Positions 21,961 to 45,027 of a stretch of DNA of 54,203 bases are shown piece by piece. The DNA is from Bacteroidota bacterium (GTDB lineage: Bacteria > Bacteroidota > Bacteroidia > B-17B0 > Aurantibacillaceae). Position numbers and translations under genes: made by a program. The number at the start of each line of letters is the position of its first letter. Within the stretch, counting starts at the first letter, position 1. The stretch lies in contig JACQAK010000042.1 in the NCBI GenBank assembly GCA_016194985.1, forward strand, positions 1-54,203. The letters run 5' to 3'. Below the pieces are notes generated by a model. That model was not told the origin of the DNA and searched no databases. It saw nothing but the letters and a program-made list of their open reading frames with translations.

Positions 21961-22036
21961 ATTCGACCCCGAAGGGGTCGTATGTAAATAAAAATCACCA
22001 ATATCTATTGATATACGACACCTTCGGGGTCGAACG
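21961..22036. repeat. CGACCCC-GAA-GGGGTCG palindromic repeat, copy 1
   Basis: Two facing hairpins. The left one, 21964-21980, is a 7-bp stem CGACCCC/GGGGTCG with a GAA loop; the right one, 22016-22032, is its inverted near-copy, and the full 76-nt unit is itself an inverted repeat. It lies between the convergent ATP_bind_4 and repressor genes and could end both transcripts. A second copy is at 25863-25935. Confidence 0.8.
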
Positions 22037-22051
22037 AAATGATGATGATTA

Positions 22052-22735
22052 TTATCTGCAACCACAATTTGGTTTTAAACATTGTACTAATATTTGTTGC
22101 GCTGCTTTCGACGACATCAATATAGGTTCTTTGGTTTTAGTACTGAGTTTTAAGGTATCATCATAAGCATTGATTTGCTCAACAATCAGTTTATCATTCA
22201 ATCCAATATTTAGGTCTGTTAAGTAATTTAAAAACACTTCGCTGTGTTCGCTAACACCCAGTACCACACATTTACAACCCTTGATGCTTTGAGATAAGGG
22301 CCTTCTGTCTGATTTAGGTAATTTGCCTTGTTTGTTGGGAATAGGATCTCCGTGAGGATCAAAATCAGGTTTGCCAATAACATCATAAATGCGGTCAATT
22401 AATTTATCGGAATTCACATGTTCCAACTGTTCGGCAATTTCATGTACTTCGCTCCAGCTAAATTTTAATTGCTTGTATAAATAGGTTTCCCAAATTCTGT
22501 GTCGGCGAACAATATTAAGCGCTATTTCCTTTCCTGAAGTTGTTAATTGAGCACCGTCAAACTTATTATAGGTAACATAGTCCTTCTTGACTAAAATGGC
22601 CAGTTTTTCAAGTACTGTAGGCGGTTTTATTTCCAACCAATGAGCAATATCCGTGGCGCTAACCACCTTACTTTTATCATGATTTGCCAATTGATAGATC
22701 GCTTTTAAATAGTTTTCTTCCCGATAAGTTTTCAT
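22052..22735 (-). CDS. DtxR/MntR-family metal-dependent transcriptional repressor
   Basis: 227 residues. N-terminal winged helix (NYLKAIYQLAN...SATDIAHWLEIKPPTVLEKLAILVKKDYV), a dimerisation domain with metal-ligand candidates H79, E83, H98, E99, E102, E105 and H106, then DPHGDPIP, and a C-terminal FeoA/SH3-like domain ending in CLKPNCGCR. Position 102 is Glu as in manganese-sensing MntR rather than the Cys of DtxR, but N8 replaces the usual Asp or Met, so metal preference is uncertain. It is divergent from a TonB receptor across a perfect palindrome, implying control of itself and the receptor. The C-terminal Cys pair is unusual. Confidence 0.9.
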   Translation of the reverse strand: MKTYREENYLKAIYQLANHDKSKVVSATDIAHWLEIKPPTVLEKLAILVKKDYVTYNKFDGAQLTTSGKEIALNIVRRHRIWETYLYKQLKFSWSEVHEIAEQLEHVNSDKLIDRIYDVIGKPDFDPHGDPIPNKQGKLPKSDRRPLSQSIKGCKCVVLGVSEHSEVFLNYLTDLNIGLNDKLIVEQINAYDDTLKLSTKTKEPILMSSKAAQQILVQCLKPNCGCR

Positions 22736-22763: not shown

Positions 22764-22779
22764 ATTAGGTTAACCTAAT
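22764..22779. promoter_or_regulatory. Palindromic operator for the DtxR/MntR-type repressor
   Basis: ATTAGGTTAACCTAAT is a perfect 16-bp palindrome in the 76-bp gap between the repressor and receptor start codons. Its halves (TTAGGT/ACCTAA) resemble the known DtxR/IdeR operator core. It covers the presumed -33 regions of both divergent promoters, a classical position for repression of both. Confidence 0.8.
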
Positions 22780-22782
22780 TTT

Positions 22783-22803
22783 ATTAAGTAGTGAGTACTT
22801 ATT
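22783..22803. promoter_or_regulatory. Second inverted repeat at the TonB receptor promoter
   Basis: ATTAAGTA (22783-22790) and TACTTATT (22796-22803) form an inverted repeat around GTGAG. The half TTAAGTA also occurs as one half of the NarL-like site at 26087. Overlap with the -7 candidate TATTTTTG (22800-22807) suggests a regulatory site, but composition is AT-rich and chance cannot be excluded. Confidence 0.35.
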
Positions 22804-22811
22804 TTTGTGGC

Positions 22812-25091
22812 ATGTTAAAAATTGCCCCAATCATTAGTTTACTATTTTGCTTTAGGATTCTTTGTAGTCAGAATTCGGGAATACTTAGCGGAACTGTTCA
22901 TTCAAACGGTCAGCCCGTTCCTTTTGTAACGGTGGGACTAAAGAACACAACCTATGGCGCAAGTACCAATACCAATGGTTATTTCGAAATTAAACAGATT
23001 GCTTTTGGAACGTATGAGGTCGTAATTTCTGCGATAGGCTATGCCAAACAATCTAAATCTGTTACTATTAGCAACTCGAAGCCAAGTGTAGCTTTGTCTT
23101 TTGAATTAAAGGAAAATCAATCAAATTTGGAGGAAGTGGTTGTCTCGGGAACCATGAAAGAAGTATCTAAAACCGAAAGCCCTGTTCCTGTAGAAGTATA
23201 TACACCGGCTTTGTTTAAGAAAAATCCTACTCCCAGTATTTTTGATGCATTACAAAACGTTAATGGTGTCCGTCCACAGCTGAACTGTAATGTGTGTAAC
23301 ACCGGAGATATTCACATCAATGGGTTGGAAGGACCTTACACTATGATTATGATTGATGGGATGCCTATTGTAAGTGGCTTATCTTCTGTATATGGTTTAT
23401 CAGGTATTCCTAATAGTCTGGTAGAACGTATAGAAATCGTGAAAGGGCCTGCTTCTTCTTTATACGGTAGTGAAGCTGTTGGAGGGTTGATTAACATTAT
23501 CACTAAAAAAACGGCCAATGCCGATAAGTTATCATTGGATGTCATGGCCACGTCTTATCAGGAATATAATGTGGATGCCGGATTCAAATACAAGCCCGGA
23601 AAAAAAGCGGATGCCTTATTAGGTGTTAATTATTATAACTATCAAAAACCGGTAGATCATAATAACGATGGATTTACTGATGTGACCTTACAACACCGTA
23701 TTTCTGTATTCAATAAATTAAACTTTGAACGAAAAGATAATCGTGAAGCCTCTGTGGCTTTGCGTTATTATTACGAAGACCGCTGGGGCGGCGATATGAA
23801 ATGGAATAAGAACTGGCGCGGCACCGACAGTATTTATGGTGAAAGTATTTTTACCGGCAGGTATGAGGTCATTGGAAAATACCAATTGCCAATAAAAGAA
23901 CGCATTTTTTATAATGTATCGTTTAATAGTCATGATCAGAATTCCTACTATGGAAAAGTGAAGTTTTACGCTCAGCAAAAAATACTGTTCAATCAATTGT
24001 ATTGGGAGAAAGAACTGAGCAAGCATTCGTTATTGGCAGGAGTGGCATATCGTTATACATGGTATGATGATAATACAGTCATTACACAAACCAATGATAC
24101 TATTAATCCTAAAAACAAACCCAATAATGTATCTCTTCCCGGTGTATTTATACAGGATGAAATTAAATTTAATTGTAATCACAAATTATTAGTTGGGTTC
24201 AGGTATGATTATAATGAAGCACATGGCAATATATACACACCACGTGTTGCCTATAAATGGACATTGAATGCTAAAAACATCTTAAGGTTAAATGCAGGAA
24301 CAGGTTACAGAGTGGCTAATGTGTTTAGCGAAGATCATGCGGCATTAACCGGCTCCCGCGAAGTGATTGTTGTTGATAATTTAAAACCCGAACAAAGTGT
24401 AAATGCGAATTTGAATTACGTGACTAAATTTTATAAAGAAAGTTTTGTCTTGGGAATTGATATGTCGGCATTTTATACACGCTTTAGTAACCGCATCATT
24501 GCTGATTATGACACGGATCCTAATAAAATTTATTTTAATAATTTGAATGGATATGCTATTTCGCAGGGCGCCAGTGCCAATATTGATTTAGTATTACAAA
24601 AAATCCCTTTAAAATTATTGGTTGGCGGAACTTACATGGATAATTATAAAGTAGAAAACGGAACCCGCGCCCGGCAGATTTTAACGGAACATTTTACAGG
24701 TACCTGGGCGCTTAGCTACGAATGGAAAAAAATGGGATTAAGTTTTGATTACACAGGAAACATCTACAGTCCTATGCGTTTACCGCTTTTGGGGCCATTG
24801 GATCCCCGCAAAGAATATTCACCGTGGTGGAGTATTCAAAACATTCAGATCACTAAAAAAATAAAATGTTTTGAGATATACGGGGGTGTGAAAAATCTGT
24901 TGAACTTTACACCACCGGCCAATAGTATTGCCCGTTCATTTGACCCATTTGATAAAGGCGTACAATATAACAGTGCAGGGCAAATTATAGCTACACCTAA
25001 TAATCCATATGCCCAAAGCTTTGATCCAACGTATATGTTTGCACCAAATCAGGGTATCCGAGGATTTTTAGGGTTACGATTCAAAATTTGA
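22812..25091 (+). CDS. TonB-dependent outer-membrane receptor, metal/heme type, plug with C-x2-C
   Basis: 759 residues from the ATG at 22812; an in-frame GTG at 22791 would spoil the signal peptide. Order: signal peptide to about residue 19, carboxypeptidase-regulatory beta domain (GTVHSNGQPVPFVTVGLKN), TonB box region, plug (SIFDALQNVNGVRPQLNC to GSEAVGGLINIITKK), then a 22-strand barrel ending in the aromatic-terminal GLRFKI. C159 and C162 in NCNVCNTGD give the plug a metal- or heme-ligand candidate. Divergent from the DtxR-type repressor, so its substrate is probably iron, manganese or a metal complex. TATTTTTG lies 4 bp before the ATG, suggesting a leaderless mRNA. Confidence 0.88.
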   Translation: MLKIAPIISLLFCFRILCSQNSGILSGTVHSNGQPVPFVTVGLKNTTYGASTNTNGYFEIKQIAFGTYEVVISAIGYAKQSKSVTISNSKPSVALSFELKENQSNLEEVVVSGTMKEVSKTESPVPVEVYTPALFKKNPTPSIFDALQNVNGVRPQLNCNVCNTGDIHINGLEGPYTMIMIDGMPIVSGLSSVYGLSGIPNSLVERIEIVKGPASSLYGSEAVGGLINIITKKTANADKLSLDVMATSYQEYNVDAGFKYKPGKKADALLGVNYYNYQKPVDHNNDGFTDVTLQHRISVFNKLNFERKDNREASVALRYYYEDRWGGDMKWNKNWRGTDSIYGESIFTGRYEVIGKYQLPIKERIFYNVSFNSHDQNSYYGKVKFYAQQKILFNQLYWEKELSKHSLLAGVAYRYTWYDDNTVITQTNDTINPKNKPNNVSLPGVFIQDEIKFNCNHKLLVGFRYDYNEAHGNIYTPRVAYKWTLNAKNILRLNAGTGYRVANVFSEDHAALTGSREVIVVDNLKPEQSVNANLNYVTKFYKESFVLGIDMSAFYTRFSNRIIADYDTDPNKIYFNNLNGYAISQGASANIDLVLQKIPLKLLVGGTYMDNYKVENGTRARQILTEHFTGTWALSYEWKKMGLSFDYTGNIYSPMRLPLLGPLDPRKEYSPWWSIQNIQITKKIKCFEIYGGVKNLLNFTPPANSIARSFDPFDKGVQYNSAGQIIATPNNPYAQSFDPTYMFAPNQGIRGFLGLRFKI

Positions 25092-25095
25092 ATTA

Positions 25096-25111
25096 TACCC
25101 TAATTTAGGTA
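25096..25111. promoter_or_regulatory. NarL-type 7-2-7 site I upstream of the response-regulator gene
   Basis: TACCCTAATTTAGGTA: heptamers TACCCTA and (reverse) TACCTAA separated by 2 bp, as in NarL/FixJ-family operators. It ends 23 bp before the -7 element TATGTTTG. A weaker inverted repeat (TTCCTAA/TTTAGTA) follows at 25118-25134. Confidence 0.62.
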
Positions 25112-25134
25112 TTACAATTCCTAAGTATTTAGTA

Positions 25135-25142
25135 TATGTTTG
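25135..25142 (+). promoter_or_regulatory. -7 promoter element of the response-regulator gene
   Basis: TATGTTTG is a perfect TAnnTTTG, 27 bp before the TTG start codon. No TTG lies at the -33 spacing, which fits an activator-dependent promoter served by site I. Confidence 0.6.
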
Positions 25143-25169
25143 TTGTTTAGAATTAATCTAAATTAAATT

Positions 25170-25817
25170 TTGAACCAACAACGCCCTATAAAAGTCATTA
25201 TTGCCGATACAGCCTTTTTAATCAGAAAGGGGCTGAGAACGCTGGTAAAAGAGAATCCGGATTTTGAGTATATTACCGAAGTAGAGGATACCAAAAGCCT
25301 CAATTCTTCCTTAAAAAAACAATTACCCGATGTATTGATTGTAGATCATTGTTGTGACGATTGTTTTTCCTTAAAGGTCATCAGCACAATAAAACAATCC
25401 TATCCAAATTTGAATATCCTGGTTATTTCTCATGAAAAAACTGCTGAGGAGATCAAAAAAGTCATTGGCATCGGGATCAAAAATTATTTATTGAAAGACT
25501 GCGATGAGCAGGAAATAATTGATGCTATTAGATCCTGTGCCAAAGGAGAAAAATATTTCTGCGGACAGATCATCGATGTGTTATTAGAGAAGGAAATCTC
25601 TATTAAAGATCATTGTTCCACAGGCGGTATTACTGAACGTGAAGTCGATGTGATCAAAGAATTGGTATCCGGTAAGCGTCCCAAAGAAATTGCGGACAGT
25701 TTGAGCATCAGTTATTATACGGTTGTGACTCATAAAAAAAATATCTACAAAAAATTGGGCATCAACCATAGCATTGAATTAGCTCAATATGCCATTAAAA
25801 CAGGCTTGATGAAATGA
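25170..25817 (+). CDS. NarL/LuxR-family response regulator
   Basis: 215 residues. Receiver domain: acidic pocket around D13 (IIADTAF), phospho-acceptor D59 (VLIVDH), the conserved switch Ser in LVISHE and Lys in YLLKD. A LuxR-type helix-turn-helix occupies about 148-210 (TEREVDVIKELVSGKRPKEIADSLSISYYTVVTHKKNIYKKLG). The start is TTG at 25170; no in-frame ATG precedes D13. No histidine kinase gene is in the window. NarL-type inverted repeats upstream of this gene and of the following heme operon suggest that it controls both, including itself; that is inference from position and symmetry. Confidence 0.92.
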   Translation: MNQQRPIKVIIADTAFLIRKGLRTLVKENPDFEYITEVEDTKSLNSSLKKQLPDVLIVDHCCDDCFSLKVISTIKQSYPNLNILVISHEKTAEEIKKVIGIGIKNYLLKDCDEQEIIDAIRSCAKGEKYFCGQIIDVLLEKEISIKDHCSTGGITEREVDVIKELVSGKRPKEIADSLSISYYTVVTHKKNIYKKLGINHSIELAQYAIKTGLMK

Positions 25818-25862
25818 ATTAGTTTTATTTAAGCAGTAGTTTAGTTACAATCTTATTTATTG

Positions 25863-25935
25863 TTCGACCCTGAAAGGGTCGCATATTAATAGAATGGATG
25901 TTTTGTTATTAGTGTACGACCCTTTCAGGGTCGAA
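25863..25935. repeat. CGACCCT-GAA-AGGGTCG palindromic repeat, copy 2
   Basis: Same plan as the repeat at 21961. Two facing 7-bp hairpins with GAA or TTC loops: CGACCCT/AGGGTCG at 25865-25881 and its inverted partner at the right end. Compared with copy 1 the last base pair has changed from C-G to T-A on both sides, keeping the stem. It lies between the response regulator and the heme operon promoter. Confidence 0.8.
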
Positions 25936-26062
25936 TGTCCTTTATACACCTCTCATGTAATTGTGCTCTTTCAGGAACGAATTGAATGCTTATTTAAACT
26001 TTAGGAATTAAGTGTTTTTATATATTTTACGTAATACCCTCTACTCATTATTGGCTATCACA

Positions 26063-26102
26063 TACCTAAACTTTGGTAGTACAATTTACCCTCATTTAAG
26101 TA
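26063..26102. promoter_or_regulatory. NarL-type 7-2-7 sites II and III upstream of the heme operon
   Basis: Site II TACCTAAACTTTGGTA (26063-26078) and site III TACCCTCATTTAAGTA (26087-26102) are spaced exactly 24 bp apart, so they face nearly the same side of the helix. Site III ends 23 bp before the -7 element, the same distance as site I at the response-regulator promoter. TACAATT follows both site I and site II at the same offset. Confidence 0.65.
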
Positions 26103-26133
26103 TTGCCGTTCGAACTTACGTCACCCATCTTTG
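26103..26133 (+). promoter_or_regulatory. Promoter of the HmuY-like/DUF6607/TonB receptor operon
   Basis: TTG at 26103-26105 and CATCTTTG at 26126-26133 (one mismatch to TAnnTTTG) are 20 bp apart. The TTG touches the right edge of NarL-type site III, a class II activator position. The ATG is 35 bp downstream. Confidence 0.58.
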
Positions 26134-26168
26134 CAAAAATTATTTATAATCATTCTAAACAATATAAT

Positions 26169-27440
26169 ATGAACAAGCCACTACTTTCCCTCGCATTACT
26201 AACGCTGGGAACACTGAGTCTAAAAGCTCAAACAATAGTCAATGATTCAGTCATGATAGGAAGCGCCAACGAATCATGGTATAAATTATCAGACGGAACA
26301 AGAACCACACAGGCACGCGCTAATTGGGAGCTTGGATTTACAACAGATGGATACGAAGTAACCGTATTATTTAATCATGCTGCAGGAAATAACGTATATA
26401 TTGCTACAGGAGCAACCCCGGCAACATTTACGGCAGTTACCCAGGCCGATGCTGCCACCACACCGCTCTATAACAGCGATTCTACATGGACATTAGGAGC
26501 ACTGAATCAGCAACCTGTAGGTTCTTATAACTATGGCTGGGGAAGTTATAATCCTTCTACTCATAATATTACAGGAAACAGAGTGTTTATTGCACAGTTA
26601 AGCGGAGGGGCTTACAAAAAGTTCTATATTCAGGATTTAACTAATTCAGGCACACCTTATATCTATACATTAGTTTATTCTGATATTGATAACTCAAACT
26701 TACACACGGTTACAATTCCCAAACAAACTTACGGAACCAAAAATTTCATTTACTATTCATTAACGACGGATGCGATCGTAGACAGAGAACCTGCTTCCGC
26801 AGACTGGGATCTGTTATTCACAAAATATACTTCTACATCAGAATTATATCAGGGCTCCGCCAATCAGGTTGTAGCCGGTGTTATTCAAAATATGGATGTA
26901 TTGGCAGCTCAGGCCAACTCGGTAGCAGCTCCTTCAACTTACACCACTTATGCCGCACATACGTTTAGCACAGCAACAAATGTTTTGGGTTGGGATTGGA
27001 AAGGATTAAATGCTTCTTTTCAATACACGGTTGAACCGGCTCGTGTTTATTTTGTAAAAACCCGGGATAACACTATCTATAAGATCGTTTTTACATCTTA
27101 TACCGGAAGCACTTCAGGGAAATTCAAATTTACAAAAGAAGTATTGCAAACATCAACTTCTGTGAATGAAGTAGGGGCAACTATCTCAGCAATGGCCTTA
27201 TATCCAAATCCTGCTAACGGAGATCATACCACATTATTATTTTCAACAACCGGTCAGGTATCCAATGTTTCAGTTTCTGTAACAGATATCACCGGTAAAT
27301 TGTTGTATACAGAGCAATTGGTTATGACGTCAGGATTGAATCAACATCATTTATATACAGGCGGTTTTAACACAGGTGTTTATTTCGTTTCTATAAATGC
27401 CGGTGGATATAGCACAACACAAAAATTAATAAAACAATAA
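26169..27440 (+). CDS. HmuY-like heme-binding protein with T9SS type A sorting domain
   Basis: 423 residues from the ATG at 26169, which opens a signal peptide ending in LKAQ. Two HmuY-like halves are suggested by NWELGFTTDGYEV and ADWDLLFTKYTS, each a W-x-(L/D)-x-F turn seen in HmuY-family hemophores. The last 75 residues (ALYPNPANGD...GLNQHHLYTGGFNTGVYFVSI...QKLIKQ) form a type A sorting domain recognised by the type IX secretion system, so the protein is exported to the cell surface or medium. The second half aligns by eye with the HmuY-like lipoprotein at 30706. First gene of the operon, under the NarL-type sites. Confidence 0.75.
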   Translation: MNKPLLSLALLTLGTLSLKAQTIVNDSVMIGSANESWYKLSDGTRTTQARANWELGFTTDGYEVTVLFNHAAGNNVYIATGATPATFTAVTQADAATTPLYNSDSTWTLGALNQQPVGSYNYGWGSYNPSTHNITGNRVFIAQLSGGAYKKFYIQDLTNSGTPYIYTLVYSDIDNSNLHTVTIPKQTYGTKNFIYYSLTTDAIVDREPASADWDLLFTKYTSTSELYQGSANQVVAGVIQNMDVLAAQANSVAAPSTYTTYAAHTFSTATNVLGWDWKGLNASFQYTVEPARVYFVKTRDNTIYKIVFTSYTGSTSGKFKFTKEVLQTSTSVNEVGATISAMALYPNPANGDHTTLLFSTTGQVSNVSVSVTDITGKLLYTEQLVMTSGLNQHHLYTGGFNTGVYFVSINAGGYSTTQKLIKQ

Positions 27441-27521: not shown

Positions 27522-28454
27522 ATGAAAACACTCATGATTATTGCCGGATGCTTATTTGCCGGAACATTATTTTCACAATCAAAATCTACTGCTAATAAAT
27601 TAGATCAGGACAGAGAGAGCATTAAAGCCATGTGTGGCATCTATAAAGTATCATTCGATTTCGCGGAAACATTTGCGCCCGATACCGCTTATAAATTTCA
27701 TGAAAGATACAGTGAGCATGGAATAGAGCAGGTATCATTGATAGAAGAAACCCCTACTAAAATCGTATTACAACATTTATTGATTATTGACGACTCTACC
27801 ATTATCAAACACTGGAGACAGGATTGGGTATATGAAAATAAAGAGATCTATAATTTTGTGAAGGATAATGAATGGTTAAGAACTAATCTCACTTCGGAAC
27901 AGGCAAAAGGAACCTGGACACAAAAAGTATATCAGGTAGACGATAGCCCCCGCTACGAAAGCTACGGAACATGGGTTCATGTAGATGGAAAACATTTTTG
28001 GGAAGGAACCAATGACTCGCCTTTACCACGTCGCGAATTTACCAAACGAAAAGATTATAATGTAATGAGACGACACATACGCATGGAAATATTCAATAAC
28101 GGAAACTGGGCTTACATTCAGGATAACGAAAAAATTATTCGGGAAAATGGCAAAGATAAATTGTTGGTTTGGGAAAAAGGAATGGAATATTTTTCGAAAG
28201 GAAAATATGATGCCTCTCCGGCCCTGAAATATTGGGAAAAACAAAAGGCCTACTGGGCTGATGTTCGCAAAGTATGGGAAGAAGTGTATGCAAAATATCC
28301 CGACTTAAAATTGGCTGCTAAAGTGGATAATAAACGCTTGTATGAAAGTTTATTCGAATTGGGCGACGAAACATGCAATAGCAAAACCTATGTAAAAGGC
28401 ACAGCTAATGCCGAAATCAAAAAAATAATAGATTCATTTTTAAAAGCGTCATAA
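27522..28454 (+). CDS. DUF6607 family exported protein
   Basis: 310 residues from the ATG at 27522; an upstream in-frame ATG at 27459 falls on the intergenic hairpin. A signal peptide ends at FSQS. The body is rich in Trp and charged residues: MCGIYKVSFDFAETFAPD, IKHWRQDWVYENKEIYNFV, GTWTQKVYQVDDSPRYE, GTWVHVDGKHFWEGTNDSPLPRREFTKR and a C-terminal helical region. These match what I know of DUF6607, commonly found beside HmuY and TonB receptors in Bacteroidota; its role in heme uptake is unknown. The next start lies 5 bp after the stop. Confidence 0.8.
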   Translation: MKTLMIIAGCLFAGTLFSQSKSTANKLDQDRESIKAMCGIYKVSFDFAETFAPDTAYKFHERYSEHGIEQVSLIEETPTKIVLQHLLIIDDSTIIKHWRQDWVYENKEIYNFVKDNEWLRTNLTSEQAKGTWTQKVYQVDDSPRYESYGTWVHVDGKHFWEGTNDSPLPRREFTKRKDYNVMRRHIRMEIFNNGNWAYIQDNEKIIRENGKDKLLVWEKGMEYFSKGKYDASPALKYWEKQKAYWADVRKVWEEVYAKYPDLKLAAKVDNKRLYESLFELGDETCNSKTYVKGTANAEIKKIIDSFLKAS

Positions 28455-28459
28455 AATAC

Positions 28460-30709
28460 GTGAGAATTTTCATCACTATTCTGATCTTATGTGCAGGCAA
28501 AGGATGGTCGCAGCAACTACAGGTATGCTCTTCCAGAGATTCTTTGCCTGTGCCTTTTGCTACTATTTATATTAAGAACAGCTTTTTAAGCTTTGGTAAA
28601 GTAGCCGATGCTAAAGGAAAAATAGAATACCATCAGGCTGAAGATGACGATAGTAGTAATTACACATTAATTATTCAGGCAGTTGGCTACGATAAATTGG
28701 TGAAAGTAATAACAGGCATAGGATTGAATAAACTGAAAAGAATTTATATCACACCGTCAAACTTAAACCTGAACGAAGTTGTTATTACAGCTCAATATGC
28801 ACCAACAGCCACCGAACAATCCGTTCAAAAGATTCAGGTGATTGATAAAGAAAAAATTCAGCAAATGGGCGCCGTTAATATGCGCGACGTGTTATCCAAT
28901 CAATTGAATGTGAGGCTTCAGCAGGATAATGTGTTAGGAGCTGGAATGAGTCTGCAGGGCATCAGTGGCGAGAATGTCAAACTATTAATGGATGGTGTGC
29001 CAATGATTGGCCGTTTAAATGGCAATATCGATTTATCTCAGATCAACGTGAATAATGTAGAGCGTGTTGAATTTATTGAAGGCCCGCTTTCTGTTCAGTA
29101 TGGAACGAATGCCTTAGCAGGAACCATTAATATCATTACTAAAAATCCGGGTACAAAAAAACTTACGCTTGCAACAACAGGTTATTATGAAAGCATTGGC
29201 ACCTACAACATATCCGCAGATGCTAATGTGCATTATAAGAAACATAATATTCAGATAAATGGAGGAAGGAATTATTTTGATGGGTGGAACACCATGGATC
29301 ATGCGTTTTATTTTCCGAAGCCTCAAATAGCCGATAGTTCCCGTTATAAGAAATGGAAGCCGAAAGAACAATATTTTGCCACATTGGGCTATAGCTATAC
29401 ATTTAATAAATTAAATGCGGGATTAAAGACCTCTTTTTTTGATGAAAAAATAACCAACAGAGGTTACCCGAGAGCACCATATGCCGAATCATCGTTTGAT
29501 GACTACTATTATACCAGGCGTTTTGATAATAATGCGTATCTGAACGGAAAAATTTCTAAGAACTGGACAGTTAATGCACTGGCAGCATACAATTATTACA
29601 GCCGGATAAAAAAAACGGTTTATAAAGATTTAACCACTTTGGATGAAACCTTGTCATTAAACAATTCCGATCAGGATACCAGCACATTTACTTTATTAAT
29701 GAGCAGAGCCTCTTTTGTTCACAGAATCGATTCTTCCAGATTAAACTATGAAATAGGTTATGATATAAATTACGAATCGGCTTTTGGGAAACGCATCAAT
29801 AATCAGTTACAATACATGGGAGATTATGCCGGCTTTGCAACCCTGGAGTATAAACCAATCCCAAAGCTTATTATAAAACCGGGAGTGAGATATGCCTATA
29901 ATACATTATACAAAACACCGCTTATTCCATCCTTAAATTTAAAATGGACATTAAACAATAAGCATACTGTCAGAGGCAGTTATGCCAGAGGATTCAGAGC
30001 ACCCGCCTTAAAAGAATTATATTTTTTATTTGTTGACATTAACCACAATATTGTGGGAAACATGAATTTAAGATCAGAACAATCAGATAATTTTTCGGTG
30101 TCTTACAACTACAAAACCACTATTAATAATTGCAGATTTAAACTGGATGTAAATGCCTTTTACAATGATATTTACAACCTCATTACACTGGCTCAAACCA
30201 CGGCTACAGAGTATTCTTACATCAATATAGGAAAATACAAAACCTTCGGCGTGCAACTTAACAATACACTTAAATTCAAAAAACTGACCTTTCAAACAGG
30301 CTTTAATTATACAGGACGTTATAATGATTTGTCGGAAACACAGGCTGTTCCTCAGTTTAATTATTCTCCCGAAGTATCAGAAAATATAGCTTATCGGCTC
30401 ATAAAGAAGAAGATCAGTATTTCCATGTTCTATAAATATAATGGTAAATTACCTGGTTATATATTGGTAGACAATAAAGTACAACAAACCAGTTTATCAG
30501 ATTATCATACCCTTGATGTAACCGTTTCTAAACTATGGTATAAAGACCGGATAGGAATTACAGTGGGATGCAAAAATATGTTTGATGTGAAGAATATTAA
30601 TTCCACAGCTGTTTCAGGAGGTGTTCACAGTACATCGTCATCAACAGTGCCATTATCAACAGGCCGTAATTATTTTATTAAACTAACACTAAGCTTAACA
30701 AAAGAATGA
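28460..30709 (+). CDS. TonB-dependent outer-membrane receptor of the heme operon
   Basis: 749 residues starting at GTG 28460. Signal peptide to about residue 18 (GWSQ), carboxypeptidase-regulatory domain (SLPVPFATIYIKNSFLSFG), then the plug (VNMRDVLSNQLNVRLQQDN to ALAGTINIITKNPG) and a beta barrel ending KLTLSLTKE. The barrel contains the receptor motif NLRSEQSDNFSVSYNYK. Position between DUF6607 and a HmuY-like lipoprotein supports heme or hemoprotein as ligand, by analogy with HmuR-HmuY of Porphyromonas gingivalis. Its last 4 bp overlap the following gene (ATGA). It is distinct from the receptor at 22812, which has the plug cysteines. Confidence 0.87.
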   Translation: MRIFITILILCAGKGWSQQLQVCSSRDSLPVPFATIYIKNSFLSFGKVADAKGKIEYHQAEDDDSSNYTLIIQAVGYDKLVKVITGIGLNKLKRIYITPSNLNLNEVVITAQYAPTATEQSVQKIQVIDKEKIQQMGAVNMRDVLSNQLNVRLQQDNVLGAGMSLQGISGENVKLLMDGVPMIGRLNGNIDLSQINVNNVERVEFIEGPLSVQYGTNALAGTINIITKNPGTKKLTLATTGYYESIGTYNISADANVHYKKHNIQINGGRNYFDGWNTMDHAFYFPKPQIADSSRYKKWKPKEQYFATLGYSYTFNKLNAGLKTSFFDEKITNRGYPRAPYAESSFDDYYYTRRFDNNAYLNGKISKNWTVNALAAYNYYSRIKKTVYKDLTTLDETLSLNNSDQDTSTFTLLMSRASFVHRIDSSRLNYEIGYDINYESAFGKRINNQLQYMGDYAGFATLEYKPIPKLIIKPGVRYAYNTLYKTPLIPSLNLKWTLNNKHTVRGSYARGFRAPALKELYFLFVDINHNIVGNMNLRSEQSDNFSVSYNYKTTINNCRFKLDVNAFYNDIYNLITLAQTTATEYSYINIGKYKTFGVQLNNTLKFKKLTFQTGFNYTGRYNDLSETQAVPQFNYSPEVSENIAYRLIKKKISISMFYKYNGKLPGYILVDNKVQQTSLSDYHTLDVTVSKLWYKDRIGITVGCKNMFDVKNINSTAVSGGVHSTSSSTVPLSTGRNYFIKLTLSLTKE

Positions 30710-31668
30710 GAATAGTCATTGCATTAGGTATGGTAGCAACTTTTTTTTCATGCGAAAAAAAGGAACTACCGGCACCAAAATACGATAGGGGAGATGTAAT
30801 GACCGCTCAGGTAGAAATGACGTCTAATTACAAAAACCAGATCTGGTTTAGCTTAAGCGAAAACAAAGTAGTTGCTACAAATCTTAAAACCGATTGGGAT
30901 ATTGCTTTTGAATCTTCGGAAAATGGCGATCACATTATTTTAAACACCTCATTAGGAATGAGAGTATATAAAACAAATAAAACTCAGCTTTCTCAGGTAA
31001 CGGATACTGCAGGCCTGGGAGCACACGAAACAGTCGATTCCCCAACGGGCAATTTGGATAGTACTGCCATTGATTGGAAAACAGGAAATAATGTGTTTAT
31101 TATCAACAGAGGCTATAGCGAAACAGGGCAGGAGTTAGGGTTTTATAAGTTAAAAATCATATCTGCCTCTGCTACACAATTTATGTTTGAATACGCGGAT
31201 ATATATGGAACACAAACCTATCAGGGAACAGTGAATAAAAACAGTGAGCGAAGTTTCAATGCCTACTCCTTAACATTACACACACCCGTTAATATCGAAC
31301 CCTTAAAAACCGGCTACGACCTTTGCTTCACGCAATATACACATATATTTTATGATCCCTTTCAGTATTACCAGGTCATGGGTGTATTAACAAATACATT
31401 TAATACCAGAATGATAAAAATATCCGACAGACCATTTTCTGATATTACCATCAATGATACTTTGGGAAGATCATTTTTAACGGCAAAAAACGCAATTGGG
31501 TACGACTGGAAAGCATTTAATCTGAATACAAACATGTATACCGTAAACACGAACTTATGTTATATCATTAACGACAGCAAAGGCTTTTATTACAAATTGC
31601 ATTTCATCGACTTTTATAATTCAAGCGGAGTAAAAGGCTATCCTACTTTTGAATTTAAAAGATTATAA
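30706..31668 (+). CDS. HmuY-like heme-binding lipoprotein
   Basis: 320 residues with a lipoprotein signal, cysteine 16 in TFFSCEKKE. The E-K-K-E after the cysteine resembles acidic lipoprotein export signals for surface exposure in Bacteroidota. TDWDIAFESSENGDHIILNT, VFIINRGYS, YKLKIISASATQFMFEYAD and YDLCFTQYTH follow the HmuY-family pattern. Its second half aligns with that of the T9SS-exported protein of the same operon (YDWKAFNLNTNMYTV with WDWKGLNASFQYTV). HmuY binds heme and passes it to the TonB receptor; the receptor gene overlaps this one. No Cys or His ligand could be assigned with confidence. Confidence 0.78.
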   Translation: MRIVIALGMVATFFSCEKKELPAPKYDRGDVMTAQVEMTSNYKNQIWFSLSENKVVATNLKTDWDIAFESSENGDHIILNTSLGMRVYKTNKTQLSQVTDTAGLGAHETVDSPTGNLDSTAIDWKTGNNVFIINRGYSETGQELGFYKLKIISASATQFMFEYADIYGTQTYQGTVNKNSERSFNAYSLTLHTPVNIEPLKTGYDLCFTQYTHIFYDPFQYYQVMGVLTNTFNTRMIKISDRPFSDITINDTLGRSFLTAKNAIGYDWKAFNLNTNMYTVNTNLCYIINDSKGFYYKLHFIDFYNSSGVKGYPTFEFKRL

Positions 31669-39778: not shown

Positions 39779-41316
<1,538 letters not shown>

Positions 41317-41467
41317 TAGAGTTATTTGAACACTCTAATGATAATTATATTATCAGATAATGAGTCGATAGTTTTTTATCTGCCTTTCCCATTTTTTTTC
41401 TCAACGCGAGGCACCCAAAACGAGCAGCAGTGAGACAGCTTGCCAAAGGGCAGCGGAAACTCAATTC

Positions 41468-41541
41468 AGTCCCGTAGCTCAGTTGGTTAGAGCGCTACAC
41501 TGATAATGTAGAGGTCAGCGGTTCAACTCCGCTCGGGACTA
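41468..41541 (+). tRNA. tRNA-Ile (anticodon GAT)
   Basis: 74 nt. Seven acceptor pairs AGTCCCG/CGGGACT, D-arm GCTCAGTTGGTTAGAGC, anticodon stem CTACA/TGTAG with loop CTGATAA (GAT) and T-arm with loop TTCAACT. Discriminator A; CCA not encoded. It lies in the 16S-23S spacer as usual. Confidence 0.97.
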
Positions 41542-41589
41542 CTACAATATGCTTCGTTGAAGGTTAAACCATTTGGCTACCTCACATTT

Positions 41590-41663
41590 GGGGGTGTAGC
41601 TCAGCTGGCTAGAGCACCTGCTTTGCAAGCAGGGGGTCATCGGTTCGACTCCGTTCACCTCCA
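41590..41663 (+). tRNA. tRNA-Ala (anticodon TGC)
   Basis: 74 nt. Acceptor GGGGGTG/CACCTCC (one G-T), anticodon stem CCTGC/GCAGG with loop TTTGCAA (TGC). The T-stem has one mismatch. Discriminator A; CCA not encoded. Second tRNA of the rRNA spacer. Confidence 0.96.
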
Positions 41664-41697
41664 CAAGTTATGTTGTAATACAACGTTCTTTTTTATT

Positions 41698-41774
41698 GAT
41701 GAATAAGCTCATTGGATGAGCAATCCCACTTAACATTAAGGGATAGGAAGCCGGTTCAATTCCGGTATTTATCA
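41698..41774 (+). pseudogene. tRNA-like sequence with abnormal anticodon arm in the rRNA spacer
   Basis: The sequence folds as a tRNA: acceptor GATGAAT/ATTTATC (7 pairs, one G-T), D-arm GCTC-ATTGGAT-GAGC, a 5-bp anticodon stem ATCCC/GGGAT, variable loop AGGAA and T-arm GCCGG-TTCAATT-CCGGT with a normal T-loop. The anticodon loop is 12 nt (ACTTAACATTAA) instead of 7, and position 8 is A instead of T. It cannot serve as an ordinary tRNA; probably a decayed third spacer tRNA or an element used in rRNA processing. Confidence 0.6.
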
Positions 41775-41797
41775 CGCTCTTCGGTTAACGAAGAAAC

Positions 41798-41806
41798 GTT
41801 CTTTGA
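41798..41806 (+). promoter_or_regulatory. boxA-like antitermination element before 23S
   Basis: Second GTTCTTTGA, about 38 bp before the 23S 5' end, matching the copy in the 16S leader. Confidence 0.5.
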
Positions 41807-41843
41807 CATATTGGATAGGAAATACAACAGAAGTATAATACAA

Positions 41844-44716
<2,873 letters not shown>

Positions 44717-44791
44717 GTTATGCGCATCCAATATTTTTTATCATTAATCTGATTAACTCGTGTCTTTTTTCAAATATGTATTTATTAAAAA

Positions 44792-44870
44792 ACTACGAAT
44801 TACGAAATTCGAGTCACGATTATAGGTTCTAAATCTAAAATTGTCAATCTCAAATCGTAAATCGTGATCC
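44792..44870. repeat. Hairpin repeat of ACGATT/AATCGT units in the 23S-5S spacer
   Basis: The left arm carries ACGAATTACGAAATTCGAG and CACGATTATAGG; the right arm carries CTCAAATCGTAAATCGTG, its near-complement. It has the same design as the repeats at 4614, 5539 and 53142 and may assist processing of 23S and 5S. Confidence 0.5.
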
Positions 44871-44875
44871 CTTTA

Positions 44876-44983
<108 letters not shown>

Positions 44984-45027
44984 ATTTTAAAATATTAGCC
45001 CTTTACAGTGATGAACAATCACGAAAC

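What the first reader, a model, noticed from the sequence alone, without database searches (positions are those of the whole stretch)
25096..26133. NarL-type 7-2-7 operator sites shared by a response regulator and a heme operon, with identical promoter spacing
TACCCTAATTTAGGTA (25096), TACCTAAACTTTGGTA (26063) and TACCCTCATTTAAGTA (26087) all have TACC-N8-(G/A)GTA symmetry with 7-2-7 geometry, as for NarL/FixJ regulators. The promoter-proximal site ends exactly 23 bp before the -7 element at both promoters; the two heme sites are 24 bp apart. The gene between them encodes a LuxR-type response regulator. This predicts autoregulation plus control of heme uptake by a two-component system, without a kinase nearby.
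Basis: partly seen in the sequence, partly recalled or inferred. Interest (0 to 1): 0.7.

Follow-up and report, generated by a model that had tools for sequence, protein, structure and literature searches.

The report
Three-cysteine regulator of heme and iron uptake

Summary
In detail: sites, 23-bp gaps and 24-bp step are as stated, and operator plus spacing exceeds chance in the window (2 matches; 0 of 100 shuffles reach 2). The bare motif is at chance genome-wide (4 vs 4 control); with promoter spacing it is enriched: 152 vs 7 in 87 family genomes, 180 vs 10 in 198 class genomes (summed in 105, 82). The operator precedes the regulator gene in 9 of 9 orthologs. Distant regulator relatives lie within 1.1 kb of a site 17 times (0.1 expected), some beside HmuY, FTR1, TonB-receptor or DUF4856/imelysin genes. 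'Two-component' is weaker: no kinase among 28 window proteins scanned; one ortholog lost D13, D59 and K109; three cysteines are invariant in 41 of 41. Best reading: a family-wide, probably phosphorylation-independent NarL-type activator of iron/heme uptake under Fur control, with a heme-dedicated, autoregulated paralog here. Binding, activation and cysteine sensing are inferred; no structure could be run.

The parts
25096..25111 (+). Regulator operator O1 (TACC-N8-GGTA) of the regulator's own promoter
   Evidence: identical in L051, TACC-N8-GGTA in 9 of 9 orthologs
25112..25114 (+). Position of the -33 element (TTA here; TTG in 16 of 17 RR-linked sites)
   Evidence: inference
25135..25142 (+). 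-7 element TATGTTTG
   Evidence: -7/-33 promoter type mentioned in PMC5609570 (passage)
25146..25162 (+). Fur box TTTAGAATTAATCTAAA (1 mismatch to TTTAGAATNATTCTAAA)
   Evidence: consensus equals the R. anatipestifer Fur box
25170..25817 (+). NarL/LuxR-type regulator, 215 aa, TTG start, cysteine-rich (H60 C61 C62 C65 C111 C123 C131 C149)
   Evidence: Pfam Response_reg + GerE; alignments; TTG start in 9 of 9 orthologs
26063..26078 (+). Distal operator of the heme promoter
   Evidence: counterparts
26087..26102 (+). Proximal operator of the heme promoter, 23 bp before -7
26103..26105 (+). Candidate -33 element TTG
   Evidence: inference from position
26126..26133 (+). -7 element CATCTTTG
26143..26159 (+). 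Fur box TTTATAATCATTCTAAA
   Evidence: box with at most 2 mismatches at 7 of 7 heme promoters
26169..27440 (+). HmuY-like protein with T9SS sorting tail
   Evidence: Pfam HmuY 2e-7 and Por_Secre_tail 5.5e-12
27522..28454 (+). DUF6607 protein
   Evidence: Pfam 8.1e-109
28460..30709 (+). TonB-dependent receptor (heme/hemoglobin or B12 receptor-like)
   Evidence: all NCBIfam matches are below their cut-offs
30706..31668 (+). Second HmuY protein
   Evidence: Pfam HmuY 2.3e-19

Best explanation
The sites are operators of the NarL-type regulator encoded between them. The regulator belongs to a family ('Cys3-RR', name used here) spread through the class of this organism. A dimer binds TACC-N8-GGTA directly upstream of a TTG -33 element, 23 bp from the -7 element, the place of a class II activator (recalled), and switches on its own gene and the hmuY-DUF6607-TonB receptor-hmuY operon (positive loop plus output). 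Iron-loaded Fur, bound next to the -7 element, shuts both promoters when iron is plentiful; when iron is short Fur leaves and the regulator drives transcription. More distant family members do the same for FeoAB, FecA-like receptors, FTR1 permease, DUF4856/imelysin and HmuY operons. The regulator's input is probably not, or not only, a histidine kinase; three invariant cysteines in the receiver and linker (plus an H-C-C-x-x-C cluster beside the old phosphorylation site in the heme-dedicated members) most likely sense iron, heme, an Fe-S cluster or redox state. Shown by sequence: sites, spacing, conservation, linkage, match to the published Fur box. Inferred: binding itself, activation rather than repression, nature of the signal.
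For: Footprint in 9 of 9 regulator promoters. 152 sites vs 7 reversed-control in 87 family genomes (summed); 180 vs 10 in 198 class genomes (summed). Site present in 69 of 98 genomes with a family member of at least 184.5 bits and in 22 of 100 others (Fisher p 8e-12; genomes are related, so p is too small). 17 of 150 listed sites lie within 1.1 kb of one of 106 such genes, 0.10 expected; none within 1.1 kb of 44 lower-scoring regulators. Positions that the pattern did not fix are conserved in the 17: second T 17 of 17, the G of TTG 16 of 17, then C 13 of 17. Genes behind 30 sites read: FeoA-FeoB 4, FecA-like receptor 3, another TonB receptor 1, DUF4856 5, small Cys-rich protein 7, heme regulator 1, others 9 (one representative each of FeoB, DUF4856 and receptor confirmed by Pfam, the rest by eye). 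Next to the regulator: HmuY, FTR1, TonB receptors, DUF4856-imelysin. Fur box: EMSA-backed consensus in R. anatipestifer (PMC5609570 passages); at most 1 mismatch upstream of 22 of 28 family genes, shuffle mean 0.09, max 2. C111/C131/C149 in 41 of 41; D59 in 38, D13 in 34, K109 in 34 of 41.
Against: No binding or expression data. The bare 16-mer is not enriched. Some genomes have many sites but no high-scoring family member (G208 with 9, G267 with 8), so other regulators share the motif; two of the 44 control regulators have a site 2.4 kb away. The 184.5-bit cut and the 1.1-kb limit were set after seeing the lists (16 of the 17 lie within 0.7 kb). 9 of 30 sites read precede genes with no evident iron link, and the iron link of the small Cys-rich protein (7) is by association only. 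Half of the 16 parsed neighbourhoods show no iron/heme gene next to the regulator. The Fur box is not evident at the regulator promoter in 4 of 9 orthologs (L054-L056, L065) and displaced in L053. L050 has the regulator without a heme operon behind it. D59 is kept in 38 of 41. No structure could be predicted.
Confidence: 0.78

Rival explanations
1. Canonical two-component system: an unlinked histidine kinase phosphorylates D59 in response to heme or iron, and the cysteines are incidental or structural.
For: D59 kept in 38 of 41, S/T87 in 40 of 41, K109 in 34 of 41; NarL-type heme response regulators with kinases (HrrA, ChrA) are known (recalled).
Against: A12 replaces the first acidic residue in 40 of 41; L065 lost D13, D59 and K109 together yet keeps operators and cysteines; no kinase among the 28 window proteins scanned; an ordinary NarL-type paralog of the same genome (L225) lies beside a gene that looks like a kinase by eye.
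Confidence: 0.25
2. The regulator is a repressor, or an activator only at some sites, and Fur alone gives iron control.
For: Fur boxes sit at the promoter core at 7 of 7 heme promoters examined.
Against: The operator abuts the -33 element at 22-23 bp from -7 and does not overlap -7, a placing usual for class II activators (recalled); fixed spacing is not needed for repression.
Confidence: 0.15
3. The TACC-N8-GGTA sites belong to another transcription factor and the regulator's proximity is secondary.
For: Genomes with sites but no high-scoring family member exist; a second palindromic class TACCC-N6-GGGTA at 22 bp precedes small secreted-protein genes; another iron activator of Bacteroidetes, the MerR-like MliR, is known (PMC9478572, passages).
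Against: Linkage 17 observed vs 0.1 expected, none for 44 control regulators; autoregulatory position in 9 of 9 heme regulators.
Confidence: 0.1
4. Chance palindromes in AT-rich promoters.
For: Bare motif at chance level genome-wide.
Against: Conserved across orthologs with spacing, enriched about 20-fold over reversed control.
Confidence: 0.01

Closest known systems
RitR of Streptococcus pneumoniae (orphan, phosphorylation-independent response regulator of iron transport)
   Same: Orphan response regulator controlling iron uptake; substitutions in its acidic triad did not affect function (PMC4395418, passages); a redox-sensing cysteine is recalled, not read here
   Different: RitR represses iron transport and belongs to another phylum; its receiver lacks the Asp, whereas 38 of 41 members here keep D59; a three-cysteine signature was not looked for in RitR
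CdhR (PG1237) of Porphyromonas gingivalis
   Same: Regulator of hmuYR in the same phylum; its operon is up under iron limitation and it has not been shown to bind iron (PMC10434189, passages)
   Different: Encoded with a hemerythrin-domain protein, not with hmuY; whether it carries the three cysteines was not tested
SsoR of Shewanella oneidensis
   Same: Phosphorylation-independent response regulator acting with Fur in iron and heme homeostasis (PMC12442407, abstract and passages)
   Different: Acts through Fur abundance according to the abstract; homology or a shared operator was not tested
HrrA/ChrA of Corynebacterium (recalled; the ChrA structure 4yn8 is a sequence match)
   Same: NarL-type regulators of heme genes (recalled)
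   Different: Phosphorylated by heme-sensing kinases (recalled)
Fur of Riemerella anatipestifer
   Same: Its predicted box ATTTAGAATTATTCTAAAT, with EMSA on four promoters including hmuR, matches the second element here (PMC5609570, passages)
   Different: No companion response-regulator operator in the passages seen; 'response regulator' and 'LuxR' do not occur in its main text
MliR of Bizionia argentinensis
   Same: Activator of iron homeostasis in a Bacteroidetes (PMC9478572, passages)
   Different: MerR-like rather than a response regulator

Membership tests
NarL/FixJ (LuxR-type) response regulators | Receiver domain plus GerE/LuxR HTH | tested here: met
   Pfam PF00072 2.7e-15 and PF00196 2e-15; VraR, NarL, DesR among the closest solved structures
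NarL/FixJ (LuxR-type) response regulators | Inverted-repeat operator, 7-2-7 type | tested here: met
   TACC-N8-GGTA 16 bp in 9 of 9 regulator promoters; the NarL 7-2-7 rule is recalled; binding not tested
Canonical two-component response regulators | Complete acidic pocket (DD), phospho-Asp, T/S, Lys | tested here: not met
   First D is A12 in 40 of 41; D13, D59 and K109 variable
Canonical two-component response regulators | Cognate histidine kinase | tested here: inconclusive
   None among 28 window proteins scanned; an unlinked kinase cannot be excluded
Aspartate-less receivers (RitR type) | Phospho-Asp replaced | tested here: not met
   Window protein keeps D59; only L065, L014 and L202 of 41 lack it
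Cys3-RR family proposed here | C111, C131, C149 | tested here: met
   41 of 41
CdhR type | Adjacent hemerythrin-domain gene | tested here: not met
   Neighbours are a TonB receptor and HmuY
Fur-regulated promoters | TTTAGAATNATTCTAAA-type box at the promoter | tested here: met
   25146 and 26143, 1 mismatch each; one Fur-family match in the draft genome
HmuYR-type heme operon | HmuY protein with TonB-dependent receptor | tested here: met
   heme binding itself not testable with these tools

The most novel reading that the evidence does not exclude
A class-wide family of kinase-free response regulators has turned its receiver/linker into a cysteine-based sensor of iron, heme or Fe-S status and serves, beside Fur, as the general activator of iron and heme acquisition in this large part of the Bacteroidota; the window carries a heme-dedicated paralog with an extra H-C-C-x-x-C cluster beside the former phosphorylation site.
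Probability: 0.4. Interest if true: 0.8.

Novelty: new variant of a known kind. Interest (0 to 1): 0.62.

Why it matters
Knowledge of the iron response of Bacteroidetes is called sparse in PMC10434189 (abstract, passages). A regulator family with a predicted operator, fixed promoter geometry, a Fur partner and a testable cysteine signature would give an entry point to iron and heme control in these bacteria, and would be a further case of a response regulator that seems to have left phosphorelay signalling, here perhaps for metal or redox sensing.

Tried and rejected
DtxR/MntR as binder of the second element: rejected, because the DtxR-type gene at 22052-22735 has its own palindrome TTAGGTTAACCTAA upstream and the element matches the published Fur box instead. 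The bare-motif genome scan gave nothing above control, and a wide gap range little (7 vs 4). The attempt to recognise CdhR-like proteins among lower-scoring hits gave regulators that look ordinary by eye, and no hemerythrin gene was looked for by a family search. Exact-box counts per genome (33 of 60 genomes) were too sparse to decide whether Fur or the regulator owns the box; the paper decided for Fur. Structure prediction was asked for 14 times and never accepted, so the closeness of the cysteines in space is untested. Literature: the listings of searches showed no paper on this regulator family (one search listed 12 of 39 papers, 15 of 16); the library lacks most subscription journals.

The tree groups the nine heme regulators with those of L199, L212 and four others (98/96), but the program warned of long branches; it is used only as a hint. 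Five near-identical rows (L024, L026, L027, L029, L032) were left out of the 41-row count; all five have the three cysteines. In one search the script failed to find the regulator in 4 of 20 neighbourhoods (L200, L203, L207, L208), which were left out of the gene tally; of the 20, 16 were chosen because a site lay near the regulator. The linkage count uses the 150 of 180 sites that one search listed; the control count was given 44 of these 150, among them the listed sites of the genomes that hold a control regulator. The 30 sites whose genes were read are those of the 152 for which one search returned loci.

Full report
OBSERVATION. The three sites, the two 23-bp gaps and the 24-bp step are in the sequence as described. 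In the window, TACC-N8-(A/G)GTA placed 23 bp before nAnnTTTG occurs only at these two promoters; 0 of 100 shuffles gave two (the GGTA form alone: 1 match, mean 0.01). The 16-mer by itself is at chance level in the whole genome (4 vs 4 for the pattern read backwards). So the promoter geometry, not the palindrome, is the signal.

SURROUNDINGS. 25170-25817 encodes a 215-aa receiver plus LuxR-HTH protein with a TTG start. Downstream lie HmuY with a type IX secretion tail, DUF6607, a TonB-dependent receptor and a second HmuY. Upstream are another TonB receptor and, divergently, a DtxR-type regulator. No kinase domain was found in the 28 window proteins scanned; some ORFs were not scanned. The genome is an unnamed draft of 4.2 Mb; the nearest named relatives are titled Bacteroidetes/Bacteroidia MAGs, so class Bacteroidia is inferred.

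FOOTPRINT. Eight orthologs were found (seven named loci; L065 from genome G061). TACC-N8-GGTA stands upstream of the regulator in 9 of 9, 23 bp from -7 in 7 and 22 bp in 2. A HmuY gene follows the regulator in 7 of 9; L050 has other genes and the L052 contig ends. Of the 7 heme promoters, 6 carry two or three TACC-type sites; in L053 the sites are degenerate and seen by eye only. Each of the 7 has a TTTAtAATCATTCTAAA-type box with at most 2 mismatches just downstream of -7.

THE SECOND ELEMENT. TTTAGAATNATTCTAAA matches the Fur box predicted for Riemerella anatipestifer, ATTTAGAATTATTCTAAAT; purified Fur was reported to bind the four promoters tested, hmuR among them (PMC5609570, passages). 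The genome has one Fur-family match. With at most 2 mismatches the box occurs 19 times against 4 for the control (palindromes counted once); neighbours include a HesB/SufA gene ahead of SufB, a TonB receptor, and the own-genome regulator paralog on contig 15, but also genes without an iron link. At the regulator's own promoter the box is seen in the window, L050, L051 and L052, displaced in L053, and not evident in L054-L056 and L065.

FAMILY AND REGULON. The regulator is a branch of a larger family. In 28 further members (27 from other genomes, one paralog from this genome) three cysteines are invariant, and a Fur box with at most 1 mismatch lies within 150 bp upstream in 22 of 28 (shuffle mean 0.09, maximum 2). 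Operator plus spacing gave 152 hits vs 7 control in 87 family genomes (70 of 87 have one) and 180 vs 10 in 198 class genomes (91 of 198). Only 7 of the 87 family genomes hold the heme branch at E 1e-60, so most of these sites must serve other family members or other factors. Many family hits are composite: TACC-N8-GGTATTG, then a Fur box, then TTTG; the own genome has one before a TonB receptor on contig 164. Of 30 loci read, 21 precede FeoAB, FecA-like or other TonB receptors, DUF4856, the heme regulator, or a small Cys-rich protein (7 of the 21) whose iron link is only by association; 9 precede other genes (representatives by Pfam, the rest by eye).

WHO BINDS. In the class set, 106 family members of at least 184.5 bits in 98 genomes were compared with the 150 listed sites: 17 sites lie within 1.1 kb of such a gene, 16 of them outside the own genome; 0.10 expected. 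None of 44 lower-scoring NarL-type regulators has a site that close, though two have one at 2.4 kb. Genomes with the family have a site in 69 of 98 cases, others in 22 of 100. Of 16 neighbourhoods parsed, 8 have HmuY, TonB receptor, FTR1 or DUF4856-imelysin next to the regulator (6 of the 8 confirmed by Pfam, L201 and L209 by eye) and 8 do not; the neighbourhoods were chosen mostly for having a site. In the 17 linked sites TTG follows GGTA in 16, though the pattern asked only for the first T: the operator abuts the -33 element, which would explain the 23-bp gap.

SIGNAL. C111, C131 and C149 are present in 41 of 41; D59 in 38, D13 in 34 and K109 in 34; the first acidic residue is Ala in 40. L065 has N13, E59 and N109 but keeps the cysteines and operators. 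The heme branch alone has C61, C62, C65 and C123 (9 of 9 vs 0 of 32) and nearly alone H60 (9 of 9 vs 2 of 32). This points to cysteine-based sensing, but no cofactor, structure or experiment supports it yet.

COMPARISON. It works like the orphan regulators RitR and SsoR (PMC4395418 and PMC12442407, passages) in linking a probably phosphorylation-independent response regulator to iron, and like CdhR (PMC10434189, passages) in controlling hmu genes. It is a NarL-family member by domains, but fails the canonical acidic-pocket test and is not an aspartate-less receiver. Hence: a new variant of a known kind.

Noticed in passing
25865-25933 and 21964-22032: Paired REP-like palindromes CGACCC-N5-GGGTCG, about 35 bp apart, in two intergenic regions; 7 matches (both strands counted) vs 0 expected.
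   Followed up: partly
25170: TTG start codon of the heme regulator is conserved in 9 of 9 orthologs, possibly a translational brake.
   Followed up: partly
L068, L070, L071, L073, L074, L078 (own genome): TACC-N8-GGTA palindromes, mostly TACCC-N6-GGGTA, 22 bp before the -7 of small secreted or lipoprotein-like genes: probably another regulon with similar geometry.
   Followed up: no
L079/L081 (own genome contig 219) and L086, L093, L094, L098, L101, L110, L114: A small Cys-rich protein (CCKKKKDCC...CKKCPGRK type; one member tested, no Pfam family) recurs behind the operator.
   Followed up: partly
22766-22779: TTAGGTTAACCTAA palindrome between the DtxR-type gene and the TonB receptor 22791-25091, likely the DtxR-type operator.
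   Followed up: no
L198, L201, L204-L206, L215; L198, L204, L205, L209-L211: By eye, an RNase Z-like gene lies upstream of the family member in the first set and an N-acetylglucosamine-kinase-like gene downstream in the second.
   Followed up: no
G208 and G267: Nine and eight operator-plus-promoter matches without a high-scoring family member; another binder is likely there.
   Followed up: no
39780-44986: rRNA operon (16S, three tRNA hits, 23S, 5S) explains the stretch without long ORFs.
   Followed up: yes
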